A stretch of DNA of 64,000 bases. Source: G965261055 sp965261055 [NCBI: Fibrobacteria bacterium] (GTDB taxonomy: Bacteria > Fibrobacterota > Fibrobacteria > UBA11236). This document shows, in pieces, positions 41,845 through 64,000 of the stretch. Below the pieces are notes generated by a model. That model ran no database searches, was not told where the DNA came from, and was given only the letters and a program-made list of their open reading frames with translations. Numbering within the stretch: position 1 is the stretch's first letter; every line of letters starts with the position of its first letter. The stretch covers positions 1,532,745-1,596,744 of the forward strand of contig OZ253440.1 in assembly GCA_965261055.1 (NCBI GenBank), in the 5' to 3' direction. Both the position numbers and the translations under genes were made by a program.

Positions 41845-44800
41845 ATGATTAGGTTATTTACATTTATAGTGCTAGCATTATCTGTTTTCAATTGTAATTT
41901 GTTTGGAAACTTAGAGCCGAGTTCAGTAAGTGTAAGTAGCGTGAGTGTTGATAATTCTAGCGTAGATCTATCAGTGGGAGGTAGATTAACAGTAGTAGCG
42001 ACAGTATCACCATCTGATGCGACAGACCAAGCATTGACATGGTCAAGTAGTGATAGATCAAAAGTGATAGTATCATCTCTTGGCGTAATAACAGGAGTAT
42101 CAATAGGAACAGCAACTATCACCGTAACGACAACAGATGGAGAGTACACAGCGGGAGTGGCTGTAACAGTAACAGCAGCAGTAAGTGTAAGTAGCGTGAG
42201 TGTTGATAATTCTAGCGTAGGTCTATTAGTGGGAGGTAGATTAACAGTAGTAGCGACAGTATCACCACCTGATGCGACAGACCAAGCATTGACATGGTCA
42301 AGTAGTGATAGATCAAAAGTGAGAGTATCATCTTCTGGCGTAATAACAGGAGTATCAATAGGAACAGCAACTATCACCGTAACGACAACAGATGGAGAGT
42401 ACACAGACACAGTAGCTGTAACAGTAACAGCAGAATTAGTAAGTGTAAGTGGTGTGAGTGTTAATAATCCTACAGTAAGTATAGCAGTGAGCGACTCGTC
42501 AAAATTAATAGCGACAGTATCACCACTTGATGCGACAAATCAATTATTGACATGGTTAAGTTCTGATAGATCAAAAGTGAGAGTATCATCTTCTGGTGTA
42601 ATAACAGGAGTATCTTCGGGAACAGCAACCATAAGAGTAACGACAGTAGATGGAAATTACAGTACTGTAGTGAAAGTAAGCATAATAGCAATAGTGGTAA
42701 GCGTAAGTGGTGTGAGTGTTAATAATCCTATAGTAAGTATAGTAGTGAGCGACTCGTCAAAATTAATAGCGATAGTATCACCACCTGATGCGACAAACCA
42801 ATCAGTAAGATGGTCAAGTAGTGATGAATTAATAGCGACCGTATCATCTTCTGGTGTAATAACAGGAGTATCTTCGGGTGCAGCAACTGTCAGAGTAATG
42901 ACAGTAGATGGAAATTACAGTACTATAGTGAATGTAAGAATAATAGTACCAGTAGTAAGCGTACGTGGTGTGAGTGTTGATAATTCTAGAGTAGGTCTAT
43001 TAGTGGGAGGTAGATTAACAGTAGTAGCGACAGTATCACCACCTGATGCAAACCAATCAGTGACATGGTCAAGTAGTGATGCTGGTATAGTGACTGTATC
43101 AGATGGAGTAATAACCGGAGTATCCGCAGGAGAAGCGAAAATACTAGCGACTTCTACAGTAGATGATTCTAAAGCAGATACAGTAACGGTGACAGTAACA
43201 GCGTCAGCATCAGTAAGGAGTGTCACTTTGAATAAAGCGACATCAAGTATTAAAGTAGGAAGCAGTGAACAATTAACAGTGTCAGTAATAGTATTGGGTG
43301 GAGCGTCACAATCAGTGAGTTGGACAAGTAGTGATGTTGGTATAGCGACTGTATCACAGGGAGTAATAACAGGTATATCAGAAGGAGAAGCGAAAATACT
43401 AGCGACTTCTACAGTGGATGTTTCTAAAGCAGATACAGTAACGGTGACAGTAACAGCGTCAGCAGTAAATGTAACCCCATTGGTAAGGAGTGTCACTTTG
43501 AATAAAGCGACATCAAGTATTAAAGTAGGAAGCAGTGAACAATTAATAGTGGCAGTAATAGTATTGGGTGGAGCGTCACAATCAGTGAGTTGGACAAGTA
43601 GTGATGCTGGTATAGTGACTGTATCACAGGGAGTAATAACAGGTATATCAGAAGGAGAAGCGAAAATACTAGCGACTTCTACAGTAGATGATTCTAAAGC
43701 AGATACAGTAACGGTGACAGTAACAGCGTCAGCATCGGTAAGGAGTGTCACTTTGAATAAAGCGACATCAAGTATTAAAGTAGGAAGCAGTGAACAATTA
43801 ACAGTGTCAGTAATAGTATTGGGTGGAGCGTCACAATCAGTGAGTTGGACAAGTAGTGATGCTGGTATAGCGACTGTATCACAGGGAGTAATAACAGGTA
43901 TATCAGAAGGAGAAGCGAAAATACTAGCGACTTCTACAGTGGATGTTTCTAAAGCAGATACAGTAACGGTGACAGTAACAGCGTCAGCATCGGTAAGGAG
44001 TGTCACTTTGAATAAAGCGACATCAAGTATTAAAGTAGGAAGCAGTGAACAATTAACAGTGTCAGTAATAGTATTGGGTGGAGCGTCACAATCAGTGAGT
44101 TGGACAAGTAGTGATGTTGGTATAGCGACTGTATCACAGGGAGTAATAACAGGTATATCAGAAGGAGAAGCGAAAATACTAGCGACTTCTACAGTGGATG
44201 TTTCTAAAGCAGATACAGTAACGGTGACAGTAACAGCGTCAGCATCAGTAAGGAGTGTCACTTTGAATAAAGCGACATCAAGTATTAAAGTAGGAAGCAG
44301 TGAACAATTAACAGTGTCAGTAATAGTATTGGGTGGAGCGTCACAATCAGTGAGTTGGACAAGTAGTGATGCTGGTATAGCGACTGTATCACAGGGAGTA
44401 ATAACAGGTATATCAGAAGGAGAAGCGAAAATATTAGCGACCTCTACAGTAGATGATTCTAAAGCAGATACAGTAACGGTGACAGTAACAGCGTCAGCAT
44501 CGGTAAGGAGTGTCACTTTGAATAAAGCGACATCAAGTATTAAAGTAGGAAGCAGTGAACAATTAGCAGTGTCAGTAATAGTATTGGGTGGAGCGTCACA
44601 ATCAGTGAGTTGGACAAGTAGTGATGCTGGTATAGCGACTGTATCACAGGGAGTAATAACAGGTATATCAGAAGGAGAAGCGAAAATACTAGCGACTTCT
44701 ACAGTAGATGATTCTAAAGCAGATACAGTAACGGTGACAGTAACAGCGTCAGCATCGGTAAGGAGTGTCACTTTGAATAAAGCGACATCAAGTATTAAAG

Positions 44801-47800
44801 TAGGAAGCAGTGAACAATTAACAGTGTCAGTAATAGTATTGGGTGGAGCGTCACAATCAGTGAGTTGGACAAGTAGTGATGCTGGTATAGCGACTGTATC
44901 ACAGGGAGTAATAACAGGTATATCAGAAGGAGAAGCGAAAATATTAGCGACTTCTACAGTAGATGATTCTAAAGCAGATACAGTAACGGTGACAGTAACA
45001 GCGTCAGCATCGGTAAGGAGTGTCACTTTGAATAAAGCGACATCAAGTATTAAAGTAGGAAGCAGTGAACAATTAACAGTGTCAGTAATAGTATTGGGTG
45101 GAGCGTCACAATCAGTGAGTTGGACAAGTAGTGATGCTGGTATAGCGACTGTATCACAGGGAGTAATAACAGGTATATCAGAAGGAGAAGCGAAAATATT
45201 AGCGACTTCTACAGTAGATGATTCTAAAGCAGATACAGTAACGGTGACAGTAACAGCGTCAGCATCGGTAAGGAGTGTCACTTTGAATAAAGCGACATCA
45301 AGTATTAAAGTAGGAAGCAGTGAACAATTAATAGTGGCAGTAATAGTATTGGGTGGAGCGTCACAATCAGTGAGTTGGACAAGTAGTGATGCTGGTATAG
45401 CGACTGTATCACAGGGAGTAATAACAGGTATATCAGAAGGAGAAGCGAAAATACTAGCGACTTCTACAGTAGATGATTCTAAAGCAGATACAGTAACGGT
45501 GACAGTAACAGCGTCAGCATCGGTAAGGAGTGTCACTTTGAATAAAGCGACATCAAGTATTAAAGTAGGAAGCAGTGAACAATTAACAGTAGCAGTAATA
45601 GTATTGGGTGGAGCGTCACAATCAGTGAGTTGGACAAGTAGTGATGCTGGTATAGCGACTGTATCACAGGGAGTAATAACAGGTATATCCGCAGGAGAAG
45701 CGAAAATACTAGCGACTTCTATCAGTAGATGTTTCTAAAGTAGATACAGTAACGGTGACAGTAACAGCGTCAGCAGTAAATGTAACCCCATTGGTAAGGA
45801 GTGTCACTTTGAATAAAGCGACATCAAGTATTAAAGTAGGAAGCAGTGAACAATTAGCAGTGTCAGTAATAGTATTGGGTGGAGCGTCACAATCAGTGAG
45901 TTGGACAAGTAGTGATGCTGGTATAGCGACTGTATCACAGGGAGTAATAACAGGTATATCAGAAGGAGAAGCGAAAATATTAGCGACTTCTACAGTAGAT
46001 GATTCTAAAGCAGATACAGTAACGGTGACAGTAACAGCGTCAGCATCGGTAAGGAGTGTCACTTTGAATAAAGCGACATCAAGTATTAAAGTAGGAAGCA
46101 GTGAACAATTAACAGTGTCAGTAATAGTATTGGGTGGAGCGTCACAATCAGTGAGTTGGACAAGTAGTGATGCTGGTATAGCGACTGTATCACAGGGAGT
46201 AATAACAGGTATATCAGAAGGAGAAGCGAAAATATTAGCGACTTCTACAGTAGATGATTCTAAAGCAGATACAGTAACGGTGACAGTAACAGCGTCAGCA
46301 TCAGTAAGGAGTGTCACTTTGAATAAAGCGACATCAAGTATTAAAGTAGGAAGCAGTGAACAATTAACAGTGTCAGTAATAGTATTGGGTGGAGCGTCAC
46401 AATCAGTGAGTTGGACAAGTAGTGATGCTGGTATAGCGACTGTATCACAGGGAGTAATAACAGGTATATCAGAAGGAGAAGCGAAAATACTAGCGACTTC
46501 TACAGTAGATGATTCTAAAGCAGATACAGTAACGGTGACAGTAACAGCGTCAGCATCGGTAAGGAGTGTCACTTTGAATAAAGCGACATCAAGTATTAAA
46601 GTAGGAAGCAGTGAACAATTAACAGTGTCAGTAATAGTATTGGGTGGAGCGTCACAATCAGTGAGTTGGACAAGTAGTGATGCTGGTATAGCGACTGTAT
46701 CACAGGGAGTAATAACAGGTATATCAGAAGGAGAAGCGAAAATATTAGCGACTTCTACAGTGGATGTTTCTAAAGTAGATACAGTAACGGTGACAGTAAC
46801 AGCGTCAGCATCAGTAAGGAGTGTCACTTTGAATAAAGCGACATCAAGTATTAAAGTAGGAAGCAGTGAACAATTAATAGTGGCAGTAATAGTATTGGGT
46901 GGAGCGTCACAATCAGTGAGTTGGACAAGTAGTGATGTTGGTATAGCGACTGTATCACAGGGAATAATAACAGGTATATCAGAAGGAGAAGCGAAAATAT
47001 TAGCGACTTCTACAGTAGATGATTCTAAAGCAGATACAGTAACGGTGACAGTAACAGCGTCAGCATCGGTAAGGAGTGTCACTTTGAATAAAGCGACATC
47101 AAGTATTAAAGTAGGAAGCAGTGAACAATTAATAGTGGCAGTAATAGTATTGGGTGGAGCGTCACAATCAGTGAGTTGGACAAGTAGTGATGCTGGTATA
47201 GCGACTGTATCACAGGGAGTAATAACAGGTATATCAGAAGGAGAAGCGAAAATATTAGCGACTTCTACAGTGGATGTTTCTAAAGCAGATACAGTAACGG
47301 TGACAGTAACAGCGTCAGCATCGGTAAGGAGTGTCACTTTGAATAAAGCGACATCAAGTATTAAAGTAGGAAGCAGTGAACAATTAACAGTGTCAGTAAT
47401 AGTATTGGGTGGAGCGTCACAATCAGTGAGTTGGACAAGTAGTGATGTTGGTATAGCGACTGTATCACAGGGAGTAATAACAGGTATATCAGAAGGAGAA
47501 GCGAAAATACTAGCGACTTCTACAGTGGATGTTTCTAAAGCAGATACAGTAACGGTGACAGTAACAGCGTCAGCATCAGTAAGGAGTGTCACTTTGAATA
47601 AAGCGACATCAAGTATTAAAGTAGGAAGCAGTGAACAATTAACAGTGTCAGTAATAGTATTGGGTGGAGCGTCACAATCAGTGAGTTGGACAAGTAGTGA
47701 TGCTGGTATAGCGACTGTATCACAGGGAGTAATAACAGGTATATCAGAAGGAGAAGCGAAAATATTAGCGACCTCTACAGTAGATGATTCTAAAGCAGAT

Positions 47801-50800
47801 ACAGTAACGGTGACAGTAACAGCGTCAGCATCAGTAAGGAGTGTCACTTTGAATAAAGCGACATCAAGTATTAAAGTAGGAAGCAGTGAACAATTAATAG
47901 TGGCAGTAATAGTATTGGGTGGAGCGTCACAATCAGTGACATGGACAAGTAGTGATAATACAATAGCAACAGTCAATTCTAGTGGTGAAATTACGGCATT
48001 AATAATAGGAACGGCAATAATCACAGTGACATCTACAGTAGACACGACTCAAAAAGCAACTGCTACAATTACAGTTATAGCAGCAACAGTAAGTGTAAGT
48101 GGTGTGAATATTACTAGTCCTACAGTAAGTATAGTAGTGGGAGATGCATCACCAGTTGAAGCAACAGTATTACCAGCTAATGCGACCAATCAATCAGTGA
48201 CATGGTCAAGTAGTGATTCTTTAGTAGCGACAATTGATGCGAATGGTGTTATCACAGGAGTATCAGTGGGAACAGCTAACATCATAGTAGAAACAACAGA
48301 GGGTGAATTTAAGGATACAGTAGTCGTAACAGTAACACCGATATTGGTAACAGGAGTGACTTTAAATACTAATGCTGTTACAGTAGGAGAAAATTCAAGT
48401 GCGAGAGTATTGGCGATGGTAGTTCCTAGTGAAGCGACAAACCAAGCAGTGACATGGACAACGAGTGATACCACTGTAGCGACAGTAGATTCAAACGGTG
48501 TTATCACAGGAGTATTAGTAGGAACAGCGGACATCATAGTCACAACCACAGAAGGTGAATTTAAAGATACAGTAGTCGTAACAATAACGCCGATATTGGT
48601 AACAGGGGTAACTTTAAATACTAATACTGTTACAGTAGGAGAAAATTCAAGTGCGAGAGTATTGGCGATGGTAGTTCCTAGTGATGCAGCGGACACGTCA
48701 GTAAGTTGGACAACGAGTGATACTACTGTAGCGACAGTAGATTCGAACGGTGTTATCACAGGAGTATCAGTAGGAACAGCGGACATCATAGTCACAACCA
48801 CAGAAGGTGAATTTAAAGATACAGTAGTCGTAACAATAACACCGATATTGGTAACAGGGGTAACTTTAGAGGATGGTGTTATTACAGTAGTAAGAAATGC
48901 AACTGTGAGAGTCATGGCAACGGTAGTTCCTAGTGAAGCGACAAACCAAGCAGTGACATGGACAACGAGTGATTCTTCAGTAGCGACAGTTGGTTCAAAC
49001 GGTGTTATCACAGGAGTATCAGTGGGAACAGCTAACATCATAGTAGAAACAACAGAGGGTGAATTTAAAGATACAGTAGTTGTAACAGTAACATCCATAT
49101 TGGTAACAGGAGTGACTTTAAATACTAATGCTGTTACAGTAGTAAGAAATGCAACTGTAAAAGTCGTGGCAACGGTAGTTCCTAGTGATGCATTAGACAG
49201 AGCAGTGACATGGTCAAGTAGTGATTCTTCAGTAGTGACAGTAGATTTAAACGGTGTTATCACAGGAGTATCAGTGGGAATAGCTAACATCATCGTGGAA
49301 AAAACAGATCGATATATACTGAATCGATTTAAAGATACAGTAGTCGTAACAGTGGTAATACCAGCAGTAATAAGTGTCTCTCTTGACAAAACAAGATCTG
49401 GTATTGTCGTAGGAGCAAAAGACACGGTAACAGCGACAGTAGTATCAGTCGGTGGAGATGCAAAAACAGTCAATTGGAGAACGAGTGATGCCGCTGTAGC
49501 GACAATTGATGCGAATGGTGTTATTACAGGAGTATCAGCGGGAACAGCAGTCATCACAGCGACTTCTACAACAGATCTTAATAAAATAGCAAGGTTAGAG
49601 ATGATAGTAGCAAATAACATTTCAACACCAAACTCTTATCTAATTACTCATACAATAACAGATTTCTATATTGGTGGGGGTATTGACAGAGCAAGTCAAG
49701 TAGCAGCCATTTCTAATGGCGATAAAACAACTAATGTTAATAGTCAACCGTATCAAGTACACATTGGTAACATAAGCAATGCGACGATTACTCATAACTT
49801 TACTAAGTCTTATAAAAATGGTGTTTATAAATATTATGGTAACAATAATGCTATTAATACTATGAATGGTGCTACTGTACAGTTTATAATTGATGATACT
49901 GTTGTTGTTGAAACAGTGACAATTTCAGATGCGACCAAGGATATTACAGTGATTCCTGATCCATCAATTGTTTTTAATAAAGTGGTGACAACCTTTCCGA
50001 ATCCCTCCGCTTCTTTTTATGAGATAGAGATTTTGGGAAGTGAAGCGACACAATCAGGAGGTATTTATTCTGTAGTGATAGCTATTCCAGCCTCATATGG
50101 TGGTTATCTTGAAGTGGGTGAGAGTCTTCAATTATCAGCAATTGTATCGGTGGCAACCTATAGAACTGCAGAGACAGTAACTTGGGAATCAAGCGATCCT
50201 ACTATAGCGACAGTTGATTCTAGTGGTGAAGTTAGGGTAGTATCAGGAGGAGGCACAGCAACCATCACAGCAATTTCTACAGTAGATCCTACTGTAAAAG
50301 GAAAATCAGAGATTATAGTACTAGAAAATATTTCAACAGCGGCTACTATTACTCATACAATAGAAAATGTGTTTCCGATTCATAATAGCGATTATGATAC
50401 AGAAGCAAAAGTAATAGTAGCGATCTCTGATGGCGATGACACAACGGATGCTAGTAGTTCTGAGCGTTATCAGGTACAGTTTAGTGACTTAAAGAATCCT
50501 ACTATTACCCATAATTTTTCTAAGACTTATAAAAATGGTGTTTATACCTATTACGGTCGTGACGCGAGGCTTGACATTAATAATATGAATGGTAGTACAG
50601 TACAGTTTATGCTTAATAATATTGTTGTTGAAACAGTGACAATTTCAGATGTGACCAAGGATATTAGAGTGGCTTCCAGTCTATCAATTGTTTTTAATAA
50701 AGTGGTGACAAATTTTAATAATACCTATGGTGCTTTTTATGAGATAGAGGTTTTGGGGCTTGAAGTGATAGGCTCAGTAGGAGGTGTTTATTCTGTAGAG

Positions 50801-51499
50801 ATAACTGCTCCAGCCTCATATGGTGGTTATCTTGAAGTGGGTGAGAGTCTTCAATTATCAGCAAAGGTATTGGCAAACTTGAGAACCGCAACAACAGTAA
50901 CTTGGGAATCAAGTGATTCCGCAATAGCCACAGTCAATCAAAGTGGTGAAATTATGGCATTAGTAGGAGGCACAGCAACCATCACAGCAATTTCTATAGC
51001 AGAAACGACTCAAACAGCGACTTTTATAATTGGAGTAAGAAAAAATATTTCAACAGGGGCAACTATTACTCATGCAGCATCAAATTTCATTGAGGTTGCG
51101 AATAGTGAGTATGACACAGATGCAAAAATGATAGCAGCCATCTCTGATGGTGATAAAACAACTGTGGCTAGTTCTACTAAAGATTATCAAGTATCCATTG
51201 GTTACAATTGGACTAGTCGTCCTACTATTACCCATACTTTTTCTAAGACTTATAAAAATGCTATTTATACCTATTATGGTCGTAACGACATGAGTGCTAT
51301 TGATGAAATGGATGATGCTACTGTATCGTTTATGAATGATACTACTGTTGTTCAAATAGATACAATTAAAGATCCAACACAGGATATTACAGTGATTTCT
51401 GATCCATCAACTGTTTTTAATAAAGTGGTAACCTCTTTTCGACTTGGTGCAGTTAAGTTTTATGAGATAGAGATTTTGGGTGTTGAGGTGACGGAATAG
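41845..51499 (+). pseudogene. Giant BIG2-repeat surface lipoprotein (gene 1), frameshifted once
   Basis: The start is ATG 41845 after GTCGGAGG. The signal IRLFTFIVLALSVFNC puts the lipid Cys at residue 17. Five varied BIG2 domains are followed by 19 near-identical 85-residue BIG2 units (43207-48080) and six varied BIG2 domains. The end is three copies of a ~145-residue module (ISDGDKTT...YQVHIG...ITHNF...FYEIEILG) alternating with two BIG2 domains. An extra T near 45721 (ACTTCTATCAGT in place of ACTTCTACAGT) shifts the frame to a stop at 45738. Reading then continues open in the other frame from 45755 to 51499. Repaired, the protein would be about 3217 residues with about 32 BIG2 domains. It is probably an exported cell-surface adhesin; the role is inference. 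Confidence 0.8.
43207..48080 (+). repeat. 19 tandem 255-bp BIG2 units within gene 1
   Basis: Units begin at 43207, 43477, then every 255 bases from 43732 to 45517, and from 45788 to 47828. Two junctions (before 43477 and 45788) carry an extra 5-codon linker that makes AVNVTPLV. Each unit encodes SVRSVTLNKATSSIKVGSSE through KADTVTVTVTAS, 85 residues. Copies differ at few places: LTVSV/LIVAV/LAVSV, DAG/DVG and TVDDSK/TVDVSK. The last unit changes to a different BIG2 sequence halfway. The low divergence points to recent expansion or homogenisation. Confidence 0.95.
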
Positions 51500-51552
51500 T
51501 CATACCAACAAAAAACGGAAACCAACAAAAAACCGCGAGATAACAGTTTCTA

Positions 51553-51668
51553 CCATTCTGTACTGGTATTCAATACTTTTCCAATAATCCCGTAGCAAAT
51601 ACCCCCAAAAACCTTGGCATTGACTTGAGGCGGCTAACCAATTTTAGAATAAACTGATTTTTAATTAG
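51553..51668. repeat. Intergenic repeat, copy 1 (after gene 1)
   Basis: About 116 bases starting CCATTCTGTACTGGTATTC and containing CCAATAATCCCGTAGCAAA and CATTGACTTGAGG recur at 55071-55184 after gene 2 with few changes. Both copies lie between a gene stop and the next lipoprotein gene. It is not coding in an obvious frame. It may be a co-duplicated 3' flank or an untranslated RNA element. Confidence 0.85.
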
Positions 51669-51688
51669 TTTATTTTTATTCTTATTAT

Positions 51689-51715
51689 ACTTGCTAGAGT
51701 TATAGAATATTGTTA
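51689..51715 (+). promoter_or_regulatory. Promoter-like element shared by lipoprotein genes 1 and 2 (copy 2)
   Basis: It matches the element at 41789-41815 at 23 of 27 positions, with the same TTGCT and TATTGTTA ends. Here it is followed directly by T-rich sequence and the 14-bp tandem repeat, which lies between it and the gene start. Function is inferred from conservation. Confidence 0.5.
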
Positions 51716-51720
51716 TTTTT

Positions 51721-51822
51721 TACCCATACAGGGTTACCCATACAGGGTTACCCATACAGGGTTACCCATACAGGGTTACCCATACAGGGTTACCCATACA
51801 GGGTTACCCATACCATACAGGG
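51721..51822 (+). repeat. 14-bp tandem repeat in the leader of gene 2
   Basis: The unit TACCCATACAGGGT occurs six times perfectly (51721-51804), then a seventh degenerate copy ends at 51822. The ribosome binding site GGGGAG follows at once, and ATG 51832 lies 9 bases further. Each unit can fold as ACCC-ATACA-GGGT. Because the array lies between the promoter-like element and the start, copy-number change would alter leader length and structure. Confidence 0.95.
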
Positions 51823-51831
51823 GAGATTTCT

Positions 51832-54800
51832 ATGATTAAGTTATTTACGTTTATATTGCTAACATTATCCGTTTTCAATTGCAACCTTTTTGACGATTCA
51901 ACACCACTTATTCCAGTAAGTAGTGTGAGTGTTGATAATTCTGTAGTAGGTTTAGTAGTGGGGGATGCATCATCAACAGTTGTGGCGACCGTATCACCAG
52001 CTGATGCAACAGACAAAGCAGTCACTTGGACAAGTAGTGATAGCGCAATAGCGATCGTATCATCTAGCGGTGAAATAGAAGCAGTATCAGTGGGAACAAC
52101 AACCATTAAGGTAATAACAGCAGACGGAGGTCACACAGCGAGAGTAATTGTAAGAGTTACAGCATCAGCAATAAGTGTAACGGGTGTGCGTGTTGCTTCT
52201 GTAGTAGGTTTAGTAGTGGGGGGTGCATCATCAACAGTTGTGGCGACCGTATCACCAGCTGATGCGACAGACAAAGCAGTGAGATGGACAAGTAGTGATA
52301 CCGCAATAGCGACCGTATCATCTAGTGGTGAAATAAGAGGGGAATCAGAGGGAACAGCGAACATCATAGTCACAACAGTAGACGGAGGACACACAGACAC
52401 AGTAGTTGCAAGAGTTACAACAACAGCAGTTAGCGTAACGAATGTGAGTATTGCTCTTAATACATTTAATCTAGTAGCGGGACTTTTTACAGAAGTAGAA
52501 GCGACCGTATCACCAGCTGATGCAACCAATAAAACAGTGATTTGGTCAAGTAGTGATTCTTCGGTAGCAACGGTCAATCAAAGTGGTAACGTTACAGCAT
52601 TAGCACTAGGAACAGCAATGATCATAGTCAGGACAATGGACGGAGGTCACACAGACACACTAGTTCTCACAGTAACAGGAGTCAGTGTGACGAGTGTAAG
52701 TGTTAGTAACGATACAGTCAATCTAGTAGTGGGAATTTCATCAACCCTCACAGCAACAGTAGAACCAATTAATGCAAGTAACAAAGCATTGACATGGGCA
52801 ACAATTGATGAATCCATAGCGACAGTTAATTCAAACGAAATAAGGGGAGTAGCAATCGGAACAACAACCCTCACAGTCAGGACAACAGATGGAGGACATA
52901 TGGATACAGTAGTTGTCATAGTCACAGCACCAGTCAGAGTAAGTGGTGTGACTTTTAATCATGATACATTATATTTAGTACGCGGAGCGATAGTACGATT
53001 TTCAGTGACAGTATTACCATATAATGCGACAGCTAAAAGAGTGACATTCTCAAGTAGTGATGAAAACATAGCGCCAATATCAGTTGGCGAGATAACAGGA
53101 GGATCATTGGGAACAGCGAACATCATAGTCACAACAGTAGACGGAGGATACACAGACACAGTAGTCGTCATAATAGGAGTCAGTGTGAGTGTTGATATTG
53201 AAACAGTCAATTTAGTAGTTGGAGAAACCGCGACAGTTGTGGCGACGGTATTACCAACTAATGCTATTGATAAATCAGTCAGTTGGAGATCAGGTTCTGA
53301 TAGGATAGCAACAGTTGATGCAAACGGTGTTATCACAGGAAGATCAGCGGGTGACGTATTCATCAGAGTAACGGCAACAAACGGAGGTCACACAGCGGAA
53401 TTACTCGTAAGAGTAACAGCAGAAACAGAAATAGAAACAGCAGTAAGTGGTGTGAGTGTTGATATTGGAGCAGTCAATCTAGTAGTTGGAGAAACCGCGA
53501 CAATTGAGGCGACAGTATTACCAGCGACTGCAACCAATCAAGTAGTGATATGGTCATCAAATGGTCATTTTGGAATATTGAGTATAGCACAAGATTCAAG
53601 AAGAGCAATAATAAGAGGAGTAGGAGTGGGAACAACAACCCTCACAGTCACAACAACAGAGGGAAGATACATAGACACAGTAGTTGTGGTAGTCACAGGA
53701 GTCAGTGTGACGAGTGTGAGTGTTGATAGTGATACAGTCAATCTAAAAGTGAACGAGACATCATCAATCACAGCAACAATATTACCCGCTAATGCAACCA
53801 ACAAAGCATTGACATGGACAAGTAGTGATTCATCAATAGCGACAATATCAAGTTTTGGACTACAAGGTATCCTAACAGGAGAATCATTGGGAACAGCAAC
53901 AATCACAGTTAGGACAACAGACGGAGGATACATAGACACAGTAGTTGTCATAGTCACAGGAGTCAGTGTGACGAGTGTGAATGTTGTTCGTGATACAGTC
54001 AATCTAGGAGTGGGAGCAACAGAAACAGTAGAAGCGACAATATTACCCGTTAATGCAAGCAACAAAGCAGTGACATGGTCAAGTAGTGATAATGCAAAAG
54101 TGACAGTTGATGCAAACGGTGTCATAACAGCAGTAGCAATCGGAACAGCAACGATCACAGTGACAACAACAGATGGAGATTACACAGACACACTAGTTGT
54201 CATAGTTACAGCACCCGTAAGTGTAACGAGTGTGAGTGTTGTTCGTGATACAATTAATCTAGGAGCGAGAGAGTCATCAACAATCGCAGTGACAGTATTA
54301 CCCGTTAATGCAACCAACAAAGTAGTGACATGGTCAAGTAGTGATATCTCAATAGCGACTGTATCAAACGGTATAATAACAGGAGGATCATTGGGAACAG
54401 CAACCCTCACAGTCACGACAATAGATGGATCTCACACAGACACAGTAGTTATTACAGTGACAACAGCATTTTTTAACATGCAGACAAGGGGAGAGGCATG
54501 GAGTGGTCGATCTATTACAGAAACAATTAATGCCAATAATATTGTGGATCTTCAGAGAGGAGGTTTTGATACAAAAAATATGGCTTTTACTGGCGGTTTT
54601 AATTCATCAGCATCTGAAGGGTTACTTTATGCATCGGGAGGAACTGGAAAAGGTCTTACATTCGGTTATAAAGACGGTGCTTTTATTGTAAGTATAGGTG
54701 AGGGTAATAATATAGATGCACAAGTAACAGGTTTATCTCAAAATACAAATTATATATATCAAATACAAATTCGGTCCAACAATGTAATTGAGGTTGGTGT

Positions 54801-54999
54801 TTATGAAGGAACTGGTTTATTCCTCAATGATATTGGATTCGATGTAACAACTGGTATTGTAGGGATAGATCTTGTTGATGGCAATGCATCAAGTTACCTT
54901 CGTTCTACTGGATCATTACAATACCCTTTAGCAGATTTTCAGGGAATTGCATCAAGGATTCTTTTCATCAGTGGTTCAGCAGATGTTCAGGATTATTAG
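51832..54999 (+). CDS. BIG2-repeat surface lipoprotein (gene 2)
   Basis: The 1055-residue product has a signal MIKLFTFILLTLSVFNC, almost the same as gene 1. About eleven BIG2 domains follow, each with the SVSV...TVSPADATDKAVTWTSSD...GVITG...TVTTTDGGHTDTVVV pattern. They are more diverged from each other than the gene 1 units. The last ~180 residues (from TRGEAWSGRSITETINANNI to ISGSADVQDY) form a separate domain with YKDGAFIVSIGEG and YIYQIQIRSNNVIEVGVYEG. It looks like a beta-sandwich of the concanavalin/LamG kind, but I cannot name it. The protein is probably lipid-anchored and exposed. The frame is intact. Confidence 0.85.
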   Translation: MIKLFTFILLTLSVFNCNLFDDSTPLIPVSSVSVDNSVVGLVVGDASSTVVATVSPADATDKAVTWTSSDSAIAIVSSSGEIEAVSVGTTTIKVITADGGHTARVIVRVTASAISVTGVRVASVVGLVVGGASSTVVATVSPADATDKAVRWTSSDTAIATVSSSGEIRGESEGTANIIVTTVDGGHTDTVVARVTTTAVSVTNVSIALNTFNLVAGLFTEVEATVSPADATNKTVIWSSSDSSVATVNQSGNVTALALGTAMIIVRTMDGGHTDTLVLTVTGVSVTSVSVSNDTVNLVVGISSTLTATVEPINASNKALTWATIDESIATVNSNEIRGVAIGTTTLTVRTTDGGHMDTVVVIVTAPVRVSGVTFNHDTLYLVRGAIVRFSVTVLPYNATAKRVTFSSSDENIAPISVGEITGGSLGTANIIVTTVDGGYTDTVVVIIGVSVSVDIETVNLVVGETATVVATVLPTNAIDKSVSWRSGSDRIATVDANGVITGRSAGDVFIRVTATNGGHTAELLVRVTAETEIETAVSGVSVDIGAVNLVVGETATIEATVLPATATNQVVIWSSNGHFGILSIAQDSRRAIIRGVGVGTTTLTVTTTEGRYIDTVVVVVTGVSVTSVSVDSDTVNLKVNETSSITATILPANATNKALTWTSSDSSIATISSFGLQGILTGESLGTATITVRTTDGGYIDTVVVIVTGVSVTSVNVVRDTVNLGVGATETVEATILPVNASNKAVTWSSSDNAKVTVDANGVITAVAIGTATITVTTTDGDYTDTLVVIVTAPVSVTSVSVVRDTINLGARESSTIAVTVLPVNATNKVVTWSSSDISIATVSNGIITGGSLGTATLTVTTIDGSHTDTVVITVTTAFFNMQTRGEAWSGRSITETINANNIVDLQRGGFDTKNMAFTGGFNSSASEGLLYASGGTGKGLTFGYKDGAFIVSIGEGNNIDAQVTGLSQNTNYIYQIQIRSNNVIEVGVYEGTGLFLNDIGFDVTTGIVGIDLVDGNASSYLRSTGSLQYPLADFQGIASRILFISGSADVQDY

Positions 55000-55070: not shown

Positions 55071-55184
55071 CCATTCTGTACTAGTATTCAATACTTTTCC
55101 AATAATCCCGTAGCAAAACCTCCAAAAACCCTAGCATTGACTTGAGGTGGGTAGTTATGTTAAAATAAATTGATTTTTAATTAG
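55071..55184. repeat. Intergenic repeat, copy 2 (after gene 2)
   Basis: This is the second copy of the intergenic element at 51553-51668, starting CCATTCTGTACTAGTATTC and ending TTTTTAATTAG. Copy spacing and gene order show that it travels with the 3' side of BIG2 lipoprotein genes. Confidence 0.85.
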
Positions 55185-55233
55185 ATTTTTTTTATCTTTC
55201 GGTTTTAAACTTATTTAAAATAACAAGGATTGA

Positions 55234-57921
55234 ATGATGTGTAAGTTAATGATAATGATAATGATAATGATATGGAATTGCGGAAATCCTATTCAAACAG
55301 TAGAGGTAAGAGAAAATGCTTCAACAGATTCTCTGACTACTACTATTACCCATACAATAACAGCTTATTTTTTACCTCCAGATACCGATTATAATACAGC
55401 AGAAAAACAAATAGCAGCCATCTCTGATGGCGATAAAACAACGGATGCTAGCGATACTGAACAGTATCAAGTACATATTGGTAATCAGACGGGTGCCACG
55501 ATTACACATCGCTTTTCTAAGAGTTATAATAAGGGTGCTTATACCTACTATGGTCGTGACAGAGATGTTGCTATTTCTACTATGAATGGTAGTACTGTAC
55601 AGTTTATGAATGATAGTATTATTGTTGAAACAATTCTAATTTCAAATCCAACACAGGATATCACAGTGACTCCTAGTCCATCAACTATTTTTAATAAGGT
55701 GGTGTTAACTATTGCAGGTGAGTTTGCTGCTTTTTATGAGATAGAAATTTTAGGAGATGAAGTGTTCCCAGTAGGAGGCATTTATTCTATAGAGCTAATG
55801 TCTTCAGCATCTCATGTTAAACAAGGTGACAGTCTTCAATTATCAGCAGTCGTATCGGCAATAAATGGAGTTGCAAAAACAGTCACTTGGAGAACAAGTG
55901 ATCCCGCAGTAGCAACAGTCAATTCTAGTGGTGAAGTCTCGGGAGTATCAGTAGGCACCGCAACGATTACAGCGACTTCTACAGCAGACACGACTCAAAC
56001 AGCAGAATTAGAGATTGTAGTAGAAGAGATTGTAGTAGAAGCGCCAAAAGCACCAAACATTTCAACGGAGGCTACGATTACTCATACAATAACAGCTTTT
56101 TATACGGGGGGGGGTATTGACACAGCAACCCAAATAGCAGCCATCTCTGATGGTGATGACACAACGGATGCTAGTGCTTCTGAAGACTATCAAGTACACC
56201 TTGGTATTATAAGCAATACAACGATTACACATAGTTTTTCTAAGACTTATAATACTGGTATTTATACTTATTATGGTCGTAACGACGGTAATGCTATTTC
56301 TGCTATGAATGGTAGTACAGTACAATTTATGGATGATACTATTGTTGTTGAAACAGTGACAATTTCAAATGCGACAAAGGATATTATAGTGACTCCTAGT
56401 CCATCAACTATTTTTAATAAGGTGGTGTTAACTATTGCAGGTGAGCTTGCTGCTTTTTATGAAATAGAAATTGTTGGGGTTGAAGTGATAGCATCAGTAG
56501 GAGGTATTTATTCTATAGAACTAATGTCTCCAGCATCTTATGTTAAACAAGGCGGCAGTCTTCAATTATCACCAGTCATATTGGCAATGAGTGGAGTTGC
56601 AAAAACAGTCACTTGGAGAACAAATGATTCTTCGGTAGCGACAGTTGATACGAACGGTATTATCATAGGAGTAAGAGAAGGAACAGTGATAATAACAGCA
56701 ACTTCTACAGCAGATACTACTCAAACAGCAGAATTAGAAATTTTAATAGGAGAAAATATTTCAATAGGAATAGTGGATTCTATGGAAACAGGGGCTACGA
56801 TTACTCATACAATAACAGCTTTCTATACCAATGTGATTAACTCAGCAACTCAAATAGCAGCTATCTCTGATGGTGATGACACAACTGATGTTAGTGGTGA
56901 AGCGTATCAAGTACATATTGGTAATCAGGCGGGTGCCACGATTACACATAGTTTTTCTAAGGCTTATAATACTGGTATTTATACTTATTATGGTCGTAAC
57001 GACGGTAATGCTATTTCTGGTATGAATGGTAATACAGTAAAATTTATGATTGGTAGTACCGTTGTTGAAACAGTGACAATTACAAATGCGACAAAGGATA
57101 TCATAGTGACTCCTAGTCCATCAACTATTTTTAATAAGGTGGTGACAACTTTTTCGAATCCTTGGTCTGCTTTTTATGAGATAGAGATTTTAGGAGTTGA
57201 AGCGATAGCACCAGTAGGAGGTGTTTATTCTGTAGAACTAATGTCTCCAGCATCTTATGTTGATTGTATTGAAGATGGTGACACGCTTCAATTATCAGCA
57301 GTCGTATCGGCAATAAGTGGAGTAGCAGAAACAGTCACTTGGAGAACAAGTGATGTCACTGTAGCGACAGTCAATCAAAGTGGTAAAATCACGGGAATAT
57401 CAGAAGGAACAGTGACAATTACAGCGATTTCTACAGCAGATATTACTAAAATAGCAGAATTAGAAATTTTAGTAAAAGGCCGCATTTCAACAGAGGCTAC
57501 GATTACTCATACAATAACAGCTTTCTATATTGATGGAGGTGTTGACACAGCAACCCAAATAGCAGCCATCTCTGATGGTGATGACACAACGGATGCTAGC
57601 GATACTGAACCGTATCAAGTATTTATTGGTAATCAGACGGGTGCCACGATTACACATAGTTTTTCTAAGAATTATAATAAGGGTGTTTATACCTACTATG
57701 GTCGTAACTCTGAGAGAGCTATTTCTGCTATGAATGGTAGTAAAGTACAATTTATGAATGATACTATTGTTGTTGAAGTATTTATAATTTCAGGTGCGAC
57801 AAAGGATATTATAGTGACTCCTAGTCCATCAAGTGTTTTTAATAAAGTGGTGACAACTTTTCCAAATGCTTGGTCTTCTTTTTATGAAATAAAAATTATT
57901 GGGGTTGAAGCGACACAATAA
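55234..57921 (+). CDS. Surface lipoprotein of alternating unknown modules and BIG2 domains (gene 3)
   Basis: The 895-residue product starts MMCKLMIMIMIMIWNC, with a short signal and the lipid Cys at residue 16, after AAGGATTGA. It then alternates four ~145-residue modules with three BIG2 domains. Each module has ITHTITAFY, AISDGDDTTDAS, YQVHIGN, ATITHSFSKTYNTGIYTYYG, MNGSTVQFM, VVETVTI, ATKDI and AFYEIEILG. The module order and the end FYEIEILG resemble a discoidin-like jelly-roll, but the match is only in pattern. The protein is probably exported and surface-bound. The frame is intact and ends before a strong terminator. Confidence 0.82.
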   Translation: MMCKLMIMIMIMIWNCGNPIQTVEVRENASTDSLTTTITHTITAYFLPPDTDYNTAEKQIAAISDGDKTTDASDTEQYQVHIGNQTGATITHRFSKSYNKGAYTYYGRDRDVAISTMNGSTVQFMNDSIIVETILISNPTQDITVTPSPSTIFNKVVLTIAGEFAAFYEIEILGDEVFPVGGIYSIELMSSASHVKQGDSLQLSAVVSAINGVAKTVTWRTSDPAVATVNSSGEVSGVSVGTATITATSTADTTQTAELEIVVEEIVVEAPKAPNISTEATITHTITAFYTGGGIDTATQIAAISDGDDTTDASASEDYQVHLGIISNTTITHSFSKTYNTGIYTYYGRNDGNAISAMNGSTVQFMDDTIVVETVTISNATKDIIVTPSPSTIFNKVVLTIAGELAAFYEIEIVGVEVIASVGGIYSIELMSPASYVKQGGSLQLSPVILAMSGVAKTVTWRTNDSSVATVDTNGIIIGVREGTVIITATSTADTTQTAELEILIGENISIGIVDSMETGATITHTITAFYTNVINSATQIAAISDGDDTTDVSGEAYQVHIGNQAGATITHSFSKAYNTGIYTYYGRNDGNAISGMNGNTVKFMIGSTVVETVTITNATKDIIVTPSPSTIFNKVVTTFSNPWSAFYEIEILGVEAIAPVGGVYSVELMSPASYVDCIEDGDTLQLSAVVSAISGVAETVTWRTSDVTVATVNQSGKITGISEGTVTITAISTADITKIAELEILVKGRISTEATITHTITAFYIDGGVDTATQIAAISDGDDTTDASDTEPYQVFIGNQTGATITHSFSKNYNKGVYTYYGRNSERAISAMNGSKVQFMNDTIVVEVFIISGATKDIIVTPSPSSVFNKVVTTFPNAWSSFYEIKIIGVEATQ
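55249..55272 (+). repeat. ATGATA hexanucleotide repeat in the gene 3 signal peptide
   Basis: Four perfect ATGATA copies encode MIMIMIMI in the hydrophobic core of the signal. Length change by one copy keeps the frame and adds or removes two residues. Gene 4 has a related but interrupted ATGATA stretch in its signal. Confidence 0.9.
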
Positions 57922-57957: not shown

Positions 57958-57995
57958 AAAGGTATCTCTGTTGTGAGATGCCTTTATTATTTTAA
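57958..57995 (+). terminator. Rho-independent terminator after gene 3
   Basis: AAAGGTATCTC (57958-57968) pairs with GAGATGCCTTT (57975-57985) with one T-G pair and a 6-base loop, followed by ATTATTTTAA. The stem is 11 bp and the position, 37 bases after the gene 3 stop, fits a terminator. Confidence 0.8.
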
Positions 57996-58042
57996 TAAAA
58001 TCTATTGATCGAGAGAACTTAAAAATACAATCTATTCACCAT

Positions 58043-58234: not shown

Positions 58235-58278
58235 TACATCGTATTACAAAAATATCGGCTACTTTCTAATCTAATCAA

Positions 58279-59176: not shown

Positions 59177-59179
59177 ATT

Positions 59180-59600: not shown

Positions 59601-59721
59601 AACGGTAAAATTTGGTTTAGTAGTCAGACGTTATTTTAATTGTTATTAATAGCCCTGTAGTCAATGTTGTCATTGAAAGTCAAAAATTCATTTTGGTAAT
59701 AGTCATGGAGTGGCTTATAAT

Positions 59722-59741
59722 TTTATTTATTTATTTATTTA
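59722..59741 (+). repeat. TTTA tetranucleotide repeat upstream of gene 4
   Basis: Five perfect TTTA copies lie about 61 bases before ATG 59803. Nothing else in the leader is repetitive. Position fits a promoter-spacing element, but no clear -35/-10 pair brackets it. Confidence 0.85.
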
Positions 59742-59802
59742 TTGTACTTAAATACAAGAGAATTTTATACATTGTTGATTTTACTATAATAGGGATTGAT
59801 AA

Positions 59803-62800
59803 TGAATAAATTAATGATAATGATAATTATAATGATGATATCAAATTGTAATCAAAATCCTATTCAAACAGAAGAGTTAGAAACAGAAGAAGAGGTTCCA
59901 GTAGCAGCAAGAAACATTTCAACAAGGGCTACTATTACTCATTCAATGATAAATTTTCATATCTCTAGCACTACCGTTTATGACACAGAATCAAAACAAG
60001 AAGCAGCGATCTCTGATGGCGATAAAACAACTAATGCTAGTGCTTCTGAAGAGTATCAAGTAAACCTTAATAATATAGTCAATGCCACGATTACACATAG
60101 TTTTTCTAAGACTTATAAAAATGGTGTTTATAAATATTATGGTAATGATATTAGTAGTGTTATTTCTGTTATGAATGGTAGTACTGTACAATTTATGCAT
60201 AATAATACTGTTGTTGAAACAGTGACAATTACAAATGCGACAAAGGATATCACAGTAACTCCTAATCCATCAACTGCTTTTAATAAAGTGGTAATAACCT
60301 TTGCAGGTAATTGGGCTGCTTTTTATGAGATAGAAATTTTGGGAGATGAAGCGATAGCATCGGTAGAAGGAGTTTATTCTGTACAGATAGTTCCTCCAGC
60401 ATCTTATGGTGATTATGTTGAAGTAGGTGAAGAACTTCAATTATCAGCAGGTGTATCGGCAATCAGTGGAGTAGCAAAAACAGTCAGTTGGACAACAAGT
60501 GATGCCACTGTAGCGACAGTCAATTCTAGTGGCGAAGTCACCGTATTAACAGTAGGAACAGCAACAATCACAGCGACTTCTACAGCAGATATGACTCAAA
60601 CAGCAGAGTTAGAGATTACAGTATTAGAAAATCTTTCAGTAGGGGCTACACTTACTCATACAATAACAGCTTTCAATGTGGTTTCGAATAGCCCTTATGA
60701 CACAGAATCAAAACAAGAAGCAGCGATTTCTGATGGCGATAAAACAACTGATGCTAATGCTACTACTCGCTATCAAGTAGGAATTGGTGGTGCTCAGACT
60801 GGTGCCACGATTACACATAGTTTTTCTGGTACTTATAAAAATGGTGTTTATAAATATTATGGTGCTAACCATGCTCTGACTACTATTGCTATGAATGGTA
60901 GTACAGTACAATTTATGAATGATAATACTGTTGTTGAAACAGTGACAATTACAAATGCGACAAAGGATATCACAGTGGTTCCTAATCCATCAACTGTTTT
61001 TAATAAGGTGGTGACAACTATTGCAAGTTATGGTGCTGCTTTTTATGAGATAGAAATTTTAGGAGATGAAGCGATAGCATCAGTAGGAGGCGTTTATACT
61101 ATAGAACTAATTGTTCCAGCATCTTATGATGGTTATGTTGAAGTTGATGATAGTCTTCAATTATTAGTAGATGTATTGGTAATCAATGGAGTCACAGAAA
61201 CAGTTAGTTGGACAACAAGTGATGCCACTGTAGCGACAGTAAGTGGTAGTGGGAAAATCACTGCATTAACAGCAGGACTGGCAACAATCACAGCGATTTC
61301 TATGGCAGATACGACTCAAACAGCAGAGTTAGAGATTACAATAATAGCAGCAAACAACATTTCAATAGGGGCTTCTATTACTCATACAATGATAGATTTT
61401 CATATCTCTAGCACTACCGCTTATGACACAGAAGCGAAACAAGGAGCAGCGATCTCTGATGGCGATAAAACAACTGATGCAAGTGCTTCTGAAGAGTATC
61501 AAGTAAATTTGGGAGCAATTACAAATGCCACGATTACACATAGTTTTTCTAAGACTTATAAAAATGGTGTTTATAAATATTATGGTAATGGTATTAGTAG
61601 TGTTATTTCTGCTATGAATGGTAGTACAGTACAATTTATGAATGATAATACTGTTGTTGAAACAGTGACAATTACAAATGCGACAAAGGATATCACAGTG
61701 GTTCCTAATCCATCAACTGCTTTTAATAAAGTGGTGATAGCTTTTGCAGGTACTGTTGCTACTTTTTATGAGATAGAAATTTTAGGAGATGAAGCGATAG
61801 CATCAGTAGGAGGCGTTTATTTTGTAAATATAATTATTCCGTCATCTTATGGTGATTATGTTGAAGTAGGTGAAGATCTTCAATTATCAGCAGATGTATC
61901 GGCAATCAGTGGAGTAGCAAAAACAGTCAGTTGGACAACAAGTGATGCCACTGTAGCGACAGTCAATTCTAGTGGCGAAGTCACTGTATTAACAGTAGGA
62001 ACAGCAACAATCACAGCGACTTCTACAGCAGATATGACTCAAACAGCAGAGTTAGAGATTACAGTATTAGAAAATCTTTCAGTAGGGGCTACACTTACTC
62101 ATACAATAACAGCTTTCAATGTGGTTTCGAATAGCCCTTATGACACAGATGCAAAAATGGTAGCAGCGATTTCTGATGGCGATAAAACAACTGATGCTAG
62201 TGCTACTACTCGCTATCAAGTAGGAATTGGTGGTGCTCAGACTGGTGCCACGATTACACATAGTTTTTCTGGCACTTATAAAAATGGTGTTTATAAATAT
62301 TATGGTGCTAACCATGCTCTGACTACTATTGCTATGAAGGGTAGTACAGTACAATTTATGAATGATAATACTGTTGTTGAAACAGTGACAATTACAAATG
62401 CGACAAAGGATATCACAGTGGTTCCTAATCCATCAACTGTTTTTAATAAGGTGGTGACAACTATTGCAAGTTATGGTGCTGCTTTTTATGAGATAGAAAT
62501 TTTAGGAGATGAAGCGATAGCATCAGTAGGAGGCGTTTATACTATAGAACTAATTGTTCCAGCATCTTATGATGGTTATGTTGAAGTTGATGATAGTCTT
62601 CAATTATTAGTAGATGTATTGGTAATCAATGGAGTCACAGAAACAGTTAGTTGGACAACAAGTGATGCCACTGTAGCGACAGTAAGTGGTAGTGGGAAAA
62701 TCACTGCATTAACAGCAGGACTGGCAACAATCACAGCGATTTCTATGGCAGATACGACTCAAACAGCAGAGTTAGAGATTACAATAATAGCAGCAAACAA

Positions 62801-64000
62801 CATTTCAATAGGGGCTTCTATTACTCATACAATGATAGATTTTCATATCTCTAGCACTACCGCTTATGACACAGAAGCGAAACAAGGAGCAGCGATCTCT
62901 GATGGCGATAAAACAACTGATGCAAGTGCTTCTGAAGAGTATCAAGTAAATTTGGGAGCAATTACAAATGCCACGATTACACATAGTTTTTCTAAGACTT
63001 ATAAAAATGGTGTTTATAAATATTATGGTAATGGTATTAGTAGTGTTATTTCTGCTATGAATGGTAGTACAGTACAATTTATGAATGATAATACTGTTGT
63101 TGAAACAGTGACAATTACAAATGCGACAAAGGATATCACAGTGGTTCCTAATCCATCAACTGCTTTTAATAAAGTGGTGATAGCTTTTGCAGGTACTGCT
63201 GCTGCTTTTTATGAGATAGAAATTTTAGGAGATGAAGCGATAGCATCAGTAGGAGGCGTTTATTTTGTAAATATAATTATTCCGTCATCTTATGGTGATT
63301 ATGTTGAAGTAGGTGAAGATCTTCAATTATCAGCAGATGTATCGGCAATCAGTGGAGTAGCAAAAACAGTCAGTTGGACAACAAGTGATGCCACTGTAGC
63401 GACAGTCAATTCTAGTGGCGAAGTCACTGTATTAACAGTAGGAACAGCAACAATCACAGCGACTTCTACAGCAGATATGACTCAAACAGCAGAGTTAGAG
63501 ATTACAGTATTAGAAAATCTTTCAGTAGGGGCTACACTTACTCATACAATAACAGCTTTCAATGTGGTTTCGAATAGCCCTTATGACACAGATGCAAAAA
63601 TGGTAGCAGCCATTTCTAATGGCGATAAAACAACTGATGCTAGTGCTACTACTCGCTATCAAGTAGGAATTGGTGGTGTTCAGACTGGTGCCACGATTAC
63701 ACATAGTTTTTCTGGCACTTATAAAAATGGTATTTATAAATATTATGGTGCTAACCATGTTCTGACTACTATTGCTATGAAGGGTAGTACAGTACAATTT
63801 ATGAATGATAATACTGTTGTTGAAACAGTGACAATTACAAATGCGACAAAGGATATCACAGTGGTTCCTAATCCATCAACTGTTTTTAATAAGGTGGTGA
63901 CAACTATTGCAAAGAATGGTGCTGCTTTTTATGAGATAGAAATTGTAGGAATTGAAGCACCATCAGTAAGAGGAGTTTATTCTATAGAACTAATTGTTCC
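59803..64000 (+). CDS. Giant surface lipoprotein of alternating unknown modules and BIG2 domains (gene 4), cut by window edge
   Basis: ATG 59803 follows TAGGGATTGATA, like the leader of gene 3. The product starts MNKLMIMIIIMMISNCNQNP with the lipid Cys at residue 16. A Glu-rich linker follows. The frame is then open to the window end, 1399 codons. It contains six ~145-residue modules (for instance AISDGDKTTDASASEEYQVN, HSFSKTYKNGVYKYYGN, MNGSTVQFMNDNTVVETVTI and AAFYEIEILG) alternating with BIG2 domains (SWTTSDATVATVNSSGEVT). Each pair of modules forms a 481-residue higher-order unit. Short frames on the minus strand inside it are shadows. Confidence 0.85.
59913..64000 (+). repeat. 1443-bp higher-order tandem repeat in gene 4
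   Basis: Equivalent points lie at 59913, 61356 and 62799, exactly 1443 bases apart. Units 2 and 3 are almost identical at the DNA level, while unit 1 is more diverged. Each unit holds two module-BIG2 pairs (717 and 726 bases). The third unit is cut by the window end, so the total copy number is unknown. Confidence 0.93.

What the first reader, a model, noticed from the sequence alone, without database searches (positions are those of the whole stretch)
41845..64000. Four adjacent giant lipoproteins sharing two repeat modules form a variable surface-protein locus
Genes 1-4 lie in one direction, are all predicted lipoproteins, and are built from BIG2 domains and a ~145-residue module in different orders and numbers. 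Copies differ in age: some arrays are nearly identical, others diverged. Flanking sequences are shared too. This looks like a locus that grows and reshuffles by recombination, as in surface antigen or adhesin families. I know of no named system with this exact pair of modules.
Basis: partly seen in the sequence, partly recalled or inferred. Interest (0 to 1): 0.85.

Follow-up and report, generated by a model that had tools for sequence, protein, structure and literature searches.

The report
Recombining stalk-and-lectin surface protein genes
An unidentified AT-rich bacterium carries a cluster of four genes for very long, probably surface-anchored proteins, built from copied stalk domains and a second domain with the fold of sugar-binding lectins; this is most likely a set of adhesins whose length and tips change by recombination, a known kind of system with an unfamiliar sequence.

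Summary
Four same-direction genes start at 41,845; the last runs off the window. Gene 1 has about 32 BIG2 domains plus three ~145-residue modules, gene 2 ten BIG2 and no module, gene 3 four modules alternating with three BIG2, gene 4 at least six and five. Gene 1 is split here by a one-base frame break near 45,720. Two minus-strand ORFs separate genes 3 and 4. The Cys leaders have non-canonical lipoboxes.

The module has no credible Pfam match, but its AlphaFold model (pLDDT 79) resembles discoidin/CBM32/fucolectin domains. Gene 1 is a chimera: leader, stalk and 3' flank resemble gene 2, its tip resembles genes 3 and 4. Eighteen of 19 255-bp units in it are 95-100% identical, with variant sites shuffled among units as gene conversion would do. 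Gene 4 carries a 1,443-bp repeat of two module-BIG2 pairs.

Best reading: fibrillar, probably glycan-binding adhesins of the "Periscope" type. Strain-to-strain variation, export and sugar binding are untested. No relative of the module was found in the collections searched, and the phylum was not identified.

The parts
41845..51499 (+). Gene 1: leader with Cys, about 32 BIG2 domains, with a tip of module-BIG2-module-BIG2-module; split into two ORFs by a one-base frame break near 45,720
43220..48095 (+). Array of 19 BIG2-coding units of 255 bp (the 1st and 10th carry about 15 extra bases); the first 18 are 95-100% identical, the last 75-76%
49622..51490 (+). C-terminal tip of gene 1: three ~145-residue modules with two BIG2 between, 57% and 55% aa identical to genes 4 and 3
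51500..51831 (+). Intergenic region 1/2: 127 columns (51,553-51,679) repeated at 55,071-55,195 at 87%; leader segments also found upstream of gene 1
51720..51813 (+). Six perfect copies plus a partial of the 14-bp unit TTACCCATACAGGG just before the gene 2 ribosome-binding site; no other copy within two mismatches in the window
51832..54999 (+). Gene 2: leader with Cys, ten BIG2 domains, unrelated C-terminal region (54,463-54,999) of unknown fold
55234..57921 (+). Gene 3: leader with Cys, four modules alternating with three BIG2
59802..64000 (+). Gene 4 (open at the window end): leader with Cys, at least six modules and five BIG2, in a 1,443-bp higher-order repeat
56056..56487 (+). Module copy modelled with AlphaFold2: discoidin/CBM32-like jelly roll

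Best explanation
The locus encodes a family of fibrillar, probably glycan-binding adhesins. Shown from the sequence: each protein starts with a hydrophobic leader followed by Cys; genes 1 and 2 continue as long rows of BIG2 domains; genes 1, 3 and 4 carry a domain predicted to have the discoidin/CBM32/fucolectin fold, at the C-terminal end in gene 1 and alternating with BIG2 in genes 3 and 4; units have been copied and shuffled within genes, and gene 1 combines parts of the two gene types. Inferred: the leader is lipidated and the proteins reach the outer surface; BIG2 rows act as stalks that hold the lectin-like domains away from the cell; unequal recombination between near-identical units changes stalk length (gene 1) and the number of binding domains (gene 4), and exchange between paralogues swaps tips, so the cell varies reach and avidity. 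This is how published Periscope Proteins are proposed to work.
For: Big_2 above cut-off in 4 of 4 proteins scanned. Module model pLDDT 79, pTM 0.79; Foldseek best match the lectinolysin lectin domain 3le0, E 5.9e-6, TM 0.68, and the first 13 of the 50 rows listed are lectin or CBM-type modules; VIA-align Z 11.5-11.8 for lectinolysin 3le0/3lek, CBM32 4uap and the S. pneumoniae fucose-binding module 2j1t. Mosaic variants: 35 of 78 site pairs show all four combinations, and neighbouring units are no more alike than random ones. Gene 4 higher-order repeat at 1,443 bp: copies 1/2 95.6%, copies 2/3 98.6% identical, differences in clusters. Gene 1 chimera: first 451 residues 50% identical to gene 2, tip 57% and 55% to genes 4 and 3. 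Third-codon GC of the array genes (0.18-0.25) is like that of five housekeeping genes (0.18-0.23), so the locus looks resident rather than newly acquired.
Against: Lipoboxes are non-canonical and no export test was possible. Three module copies scanned alone reached no credible Pfam family, and profile-profile support for F5/8C is weak (20% one way, 3.8% the other). The highest VIA-align rows are BIRC6 chains (Z 11.6-12.6), and SUN, muskelin and APC/C domains appear among Foldseek's rows from rank 14 on: relatives of this fold that, as far as I recall, are not lectins, so fold alone does not show sugar binding. Gene 1 as assembled would stop after 1,297 residues, before its tip. Distinct variants in the array (6 synonymous, 12 replacement; expected synonymous share 26%) do not depart clearly from neutral. 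No second isolate, so no length variation was seen.
Confidence: 0.55

Rival explanations
1. Nutrient capture: the proteins are lipid-anchored glycan-binding proteins in which BIG2 domains are spacers and the CBM32-like domains hold polysaccharide near the cell, as SusE/SusF-like proteins do (recalled).
For: The best fold neighbours are lectin domains and carbohydrate-binding modules, several from enzymes; genes 3 and 4 repeat the lectin-like domain many times, which suits multivalent capture more than a single tip.
Against: No SusC/D-like or glycoside hydrolase gene was recognised by eye among the ORFs; not every ORF was family-searched, the transporter recognised is the phosphate one (PstS), and one divergent polysaccharide deacetylase is present at 8,628-9,758. 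The near-identical unit array of gene 1 is not needed for capture.
Confidence: 0.2
2. Antigenic variation: the domains are mainly decoys, and recombination serves to change epitopes under immune or grazing pressure.
For: Gene conversion mosaic in gene 1 and clustered differences in gene 4; paralogues with exchanged parts.
Against: The gene 1 stalk units are nearly uniform rather than diverse, and variants show no excess of replacements. No silent copy: the locus matches nothing in the first 41.8 kb of the window by blastn or tblastx (the rest of the genome is not held). Nothing shows that the organism lives in an animal.
Confidence: 0.12
3. Decay or drift: the arrays are by-products of replication slippage in genes that are no longer needed.
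For: Frame break in gene 1; other broken genes in the window: restriction-modification or defence remnants at 6,173-7,795 and a 13-bp tandem duplication at the end of the reading frame of an AstE-like gene.
Against: Genes 2 and 3 and the visible part of gene 4 are fully open over 2.7-4.2 kb, and the 19 units of gene 1 keep frame apart from one base.
Confidence: 0.08
4. Assembly artefact: the copy number, mosaic and frame break of the gene 1 array are partly assembly or base-calling errors.
For: Near-identical 255-bp units over 4.9 kb are hard to assemble; the frame break lies inside the array.
Against: The first 18 units differ by about five bases on average and two carry an insertion of about 15 bases at different places; the modular anatomy outside the array does not depend on it.
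Confidence: 0.05

Closest known systems
Periscope Proteins (SasG, Rib, Sgo_0707, CdrA; PMC9704523 and PMC8201768, passages read)
   Same: Long row of folded domains encoded by near-identical tandem DNA repeats, with a separate putative binding domain away from the anchor; homologous recombination is the proposed motor.
   Different: Leader with Cys instead of a sortase motif or barrel; lectin-like modules also alternate with BIG2 (genes 3, 4); several paralogues with exchanged parts; length variation among strains not shown.
Leptospira LigA/LigB (PMC7821625, passages read)
   Same: Exported lipoproteins made mostly of tandem Big_2 domains, with paralogues that share their N-terminal part and differ at the C-terminal part.
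   Different: Lig domains are only moderately alike and 'not repeats'; LigB has 12 BIG2 and a C-terminal extension with putative Big_5 domains; no discoidin-like domain is mentioned in the passages read. Here gene 1 has about 32 BIG2, 18 of them from near-identical units, and genes 1/2 share their N-terminal parts at only 50%.
Inverse autotransporters (intimin/invasin family; 2-47 BIg repeats per PMC9704523)
   Same: N-terminal anchor, BIG stalk, C-terminal effector domain.
   Different: No N-terminal barrel here: BIG2 or the module follows the leader directly.
F5/8 type C / CBM32 / F-type lectin domains (3le0, 4uap, 2j22)
   Same: Same predicted jelly-roll fold over 126-129 aligned residues, with the DGD...T and C-terminal YEIEI motifs in register with F5/8C sequences.
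   Different: 12-17% identity to these three, no Pfam match, no tested ligand; used as a repeat alternating with BIG2.

Membership tests
Pfam Big_2 (PF02368) | Score above the curated cut-off | tested here: met
   112-422 bits against 22.8 in 4 of 4 proteins scanned; the second ORF of gene 1 was not scanned with Pfam
F5/8 type C / CBM32-like domain | Discoidin-type jelly-roll fold | tested here: met
   On a predicted model of one of 13 copies: Foldseek E 5.9e-6 and TM 0.68 to 3le0; VIA-align Z 11.7, rmsd 3.1, 129 aligned
F5/8 type C / CBM32-like domain | Pfam F5_F8_type_C (PF00754) sequence match | tested here: not met
   3 of 13 module copies scanned alone at E up to 10: none listed PF00754; nor did the four proteins at E up to 1
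F5/8 type C / CBM32-like domain | Profile-profile sequence similarity | tested here: inconclusive
   hhalign of 13 modules against 18 F5/8C domains: probability 20%, 108 columns; reverse direction 3.8% over 20 columns; three controls with the module or a reversed profile 0.3-0.8%
F5/8 type C / CBM32-like domain | Sugar or ligand binding | not testable with these tools
   no binding data; ligand residues were not mapped
Periscope Protein | Tandem folded domains of very high DNA identity | tested here: met
   18 of 19 units 95-100% identical
Periscope Protein | Repeat number varies between strains | not testable with these tools
   no second isolate; no genome held for the window
Periscope Protein | Attached to the cell surface | tested here: inconclusive
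   leader and Cys in 4 of 4, but non-canonical lipobox
Periscope Protein | Functional domain at the cell-distal end | tested here: inconclusive
   gene 1 ends in modules with a lectin-like predicted fold, gene 2 in a region of unknown fold; genes 3/4 have modules throughout
Inverse autotransporter | N-terminal beta-barrel (IAT_beta) | tested here: not met
   not among Pfam matches of the four proteins scanned, which include all four N-termini; repeats start right after the leader
Leptospira Lig proteins | Sequence kinship with LigA/LigB | not tested
   no Lig sequence was compared; only the architecture was set beside the review

The most novel reading that the evidence does not exclude
A locus in which three properties of one kind of surface fibre vary by repeat recombination: stalk length (255-bp units of gene 1), number and mixture of lectin-like domains (1,443-bp unit of gene 4, tip exchange between paralogues), and expression (a 14-bp hairpin-forming array in the gene 2 leader), in a lineage that could not be identified and with a module that has no relative in the collections searched.
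Probability: 0.12. Interest if true: 0.7.

Novelty: new variant of a known kind. Interest (0 to 1): 0.45.

Why it matters
If the reading is right, this extends the Periscope idea (surface proteins that change length by recombination) to probable lipid-anchored proteins of an unidentified lineage. It also adds a second step: lectin-like domains that are themselves multiplied and exchanged between paralogues. The near-identical arrays, mosaic variants and chimeric gene give concrete predictions for long-read population data.

Tried and rejected
Module relatives: pattern scans gave 88 stretches in genome contigs and 77 in viral contigs, none a relative by tblastn. The gene 3 protein found nothing by tblastn in plasmids or phages. 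The module profile found nothing in 395 and 132 genomes at E 1e-4 and in 75 and 337 genomes at E 1e-3. These empty answers have no positive control, and as far as can be told the home lineage was not among the groups. The solved-structure search by sequence gave two weak matches, E 0.72 and 2.3. NCBIfam gave nothing above its cut-offs for the four proteins.

Organism: the ActB scan kept the best 80 of 251 relatives, best 43%. ActB reached at most 45% over full length in 148 genomes of the phylum of a Rhodothermales genome, of which 81 matched at E 1e-100; higher values there are for partial matches. Aspartyl-tRNA synthetase reached at most 51% in five sets of 16, 77, 61, 59 and 75 genomes. Phylum left open.

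Gene 2 C-terminus: one weak Pfam match below cut-off and a single-sequence model too poor to use (pLDDT 39). I thought of a laminin-G-like domain from memory; no call supports it.

Gene 2 leader: no promoter-like or terminator-like site was found at 51,480-51,900, no Rfam family besides the three tRNAs in the window, no copy of the doubled 14-bp unit in viral contigs. The start regions of genes 3 and 4, which lack the array, are also largely paired in the same calculation, so pairing at the gene 2 start is not distinctive.

Considered and rejected: inverse autotransporter (no barrel); recent import of the genes (third-codon GC like housekeeping genes); a higher-order period in gene 1 (one of 14 lags at p 0.02, not significant after correction). 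BIRC6 chains lead the VIA-align list (Z 11.6-12.6); rows within 1 of each other are ties, and they were not read as kinship.

BIG2 elsewhere: Big_2 matched in 2 of the 8 genomes used for the F5/8C comparison; nothing was made of it.

Literature: searches. Papers seen as passages only: PMC7821625, PMC9210967, PMC9704523, PMC8201768, PMC8286594; the others as listings. The SusE/SusF comparison and the canonical lipobox are recalled.

Full report
WHAT IS THERE. The first 41 kb of the window is ordinary AT-rich bacterial chromosome with alternative complex III and cytochrome oxidase genes and riboflavin, histidine and aromatic synthesis genes (recognised by eye in the ORF translations, except where a family search is cited) and three tRNA genes. 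From 41,845 four long genes follow on the + strand. Gene 1 (41,845-51,499) is split into two ORFs by a one-base shift near 45,720, inside a near-identical array. Gene 2 is 51,832-54,999, gene 3 is 55,234-57,921, and gene 4 starts at 59,802 and leaves the window. Between genes 3 and 4 lie two minus-strand ORFs, AstE/AspA-like and CBS, so the four are a cluster but not strictly adjacent.

DOMAINS. Pfam Big_2 is far above its cut-off in the four proteins scanned, with 15, 10, 3 and 5 stretches in the first ORF of gene 1, gene 2, gene 3 and visible gene 4. A home-made profile, built from one seed, gives the same numbers and 17 more in the second ORF of gene 1, about 32 in all. The ~145-residue module occurs 13 times, 3 in gene 1, 4 in gene 3 and 6 in gene 4, none in gene 2. 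Gene 2 ends in 178 residues that match none of the six other parts compared and could not be folded.

THE MODULE HAS A KNOWN FOLD. Three of 13 copies scanned alone hit no credible Pfam family. An AlphaFold2 model from an alignment of ten of the 13 copies has pLDDT 79 and pTM 0.79, with residues 19-34 poor. Foldseek's best PDB match is the fucose-binding lectin domain of lectinolysin (3le0, E 5.9e-6), and the first 13 of the 50 rows listed are lectin or CBM-type modules; SUN, muskelin and APC/C domains appear from rank 14 on. VIA-align gives Z 11.5-11.8 for lectinolysin, CBM32 4uap and the pneumococcal fucose-binding module 2j1t, and 11.6-12.6 for the BIRC6 chains that lead its list, a tie. Profile-profile comparison with 18 F5/8C domains from seven of eight genomes searched gives only 20% probability one way and 3.8% the other, against 0.3-0.8% for three controls, though the DGD...T and C-terminal YEIEI motifs fall in register. 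So: discoidin/CBM32-like fold likely, sequence membership not reached, sugar binding untested.

RECOMBINATION. Gene 1 has 19 units of 255 bp, of which 18 are 95-100% identical and the last 75-76%. Variant sites are shuffled: 35 of 78 pairs of informative sites show all four combinations, 17 of 36 by hand count from that output if the four sites beside a 15-base indel are dropped, and neighbouring units are no more alike than random ones. Gene conversion or unequal crossing-over explains this better than repeated mutation; misassembly could mimic part of it. Gene 4 carries a 1,443-bp double unit (two modules, two BIG2), 95.6% identical between copies 1 and 2 and 98.6% between copies 2 and 3 over the 1,200 bases available, with differences in clusters. 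Gene 1 is a chimera: its first 451 residues are 50% identical to gene 2, and its tip 57% and 55% to genes 4 and 3. The last ~170 bases of its stalk are already of the gene 3/4 type, 76-77% at DNA level. Leaders of genes 1/2 and of genes 3/4 are shared, as is a 127-column stretch downstream of genes 1 and 2 at 87%. Distinct variants in the array are 6 synonymous and 12 replacement, not clearly different from neutral (expected synonymous share 26%).

EXPORT. All four proteins begin with a short hydrophobic leader and Cys. The residue before Cys is Asn in all four, unlike PstS and the ActE-like protein in the same window, whose leaders read LASC and IGGC. Lipidation is plausible but not established.

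GENE 2 LEADER. Six perfect and one partial copy of a 14-bp unit lie between a segment shared with gene 1 and the ribosome-binding site. The RNA folds better than 200 of 200 shuffles (z -3.8). Three of the four bases of the GGGG in the ribosome-binding site are mostly paired and the start codon is about 90% paired in the native sequence, but the start regions of genes 3 and 4, which have no such array, are largely paired too. Copy-number control of expression is a speculation.

RELATIVES AND ORGANISM. No relative of the module was found in the collections searched, and the phylum was not identified. These negatives are weak: the scans need short exact peptides, and the genome sets had no positive control.

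VERDICT. The anatomy fits a fibrillar adhesin family of the Periscope kind, with lectin-like domains that are themselves multiplied. Periscope Proteins are described as surface proteins with highly identical tandem domains that change in number (passages in PMC9704523 and PMC8201768); the high identity is met, the change in number cannot be tested here. Leptospira Lig proteins (passages in PMC7821625) are the nearest lipoprotein analogue I know, but their domains are not near-identical repeats. I rate it a new variant of a known kind.

Noticed in passing
51720-51813: Six perfect copies and a partial of the 14-bp unit TTACCCATACAGGG directly before the gene 2 ribosome-binding site, absent before its paralogue gene 1; the leader folds strongly (z -3.8), though the start regions of genes 3 and 4 without such an array are largely paired as well.
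   Followed up: partly
58474-58500 (minus-strand gene 58478-59176): A perfect 13-bp tandem duplication sits at the end of the reading frame of an AstE/AspA-like gene and probably shifts it; a 50-residue ORF just beyond (58279-58431) may be the rest of the gene, not family-searched.
   Followed up: partly
6173-7795: Fragments of an EcoRI-type adenine methylase, a GmrSD-like N-terminal domain and an HNH endonuclease in separate short ORFs: a decayed restriction-modification or defence region.
   Followed up: partly
about 45720: A one-base shift in a single 255-bp unit splits gene 1 into two ORFs; sequencing error or real break cannot be told.
   Followed up: partly
55247-55272 and 59797-59836: The leaders of genes 3 and 4 are coded by short repeats of TAATGA type, giving runs of Met-Ile before the Cys.
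   Followed up: no
54463-54999: The C-terminal region of gene 2 has no family match above cut-off and no relative among the parts of the locus compared; possibly a different tip domain.
   Followed up: partly
42001-54000: The array genes have higher GC and stronger purine skew than the rest of the window although their third-codon GC is like that of housekeeping genes; the shift probably comes from their Thr/Ser/Val/Ala-rich composition.
   Followed up: partly
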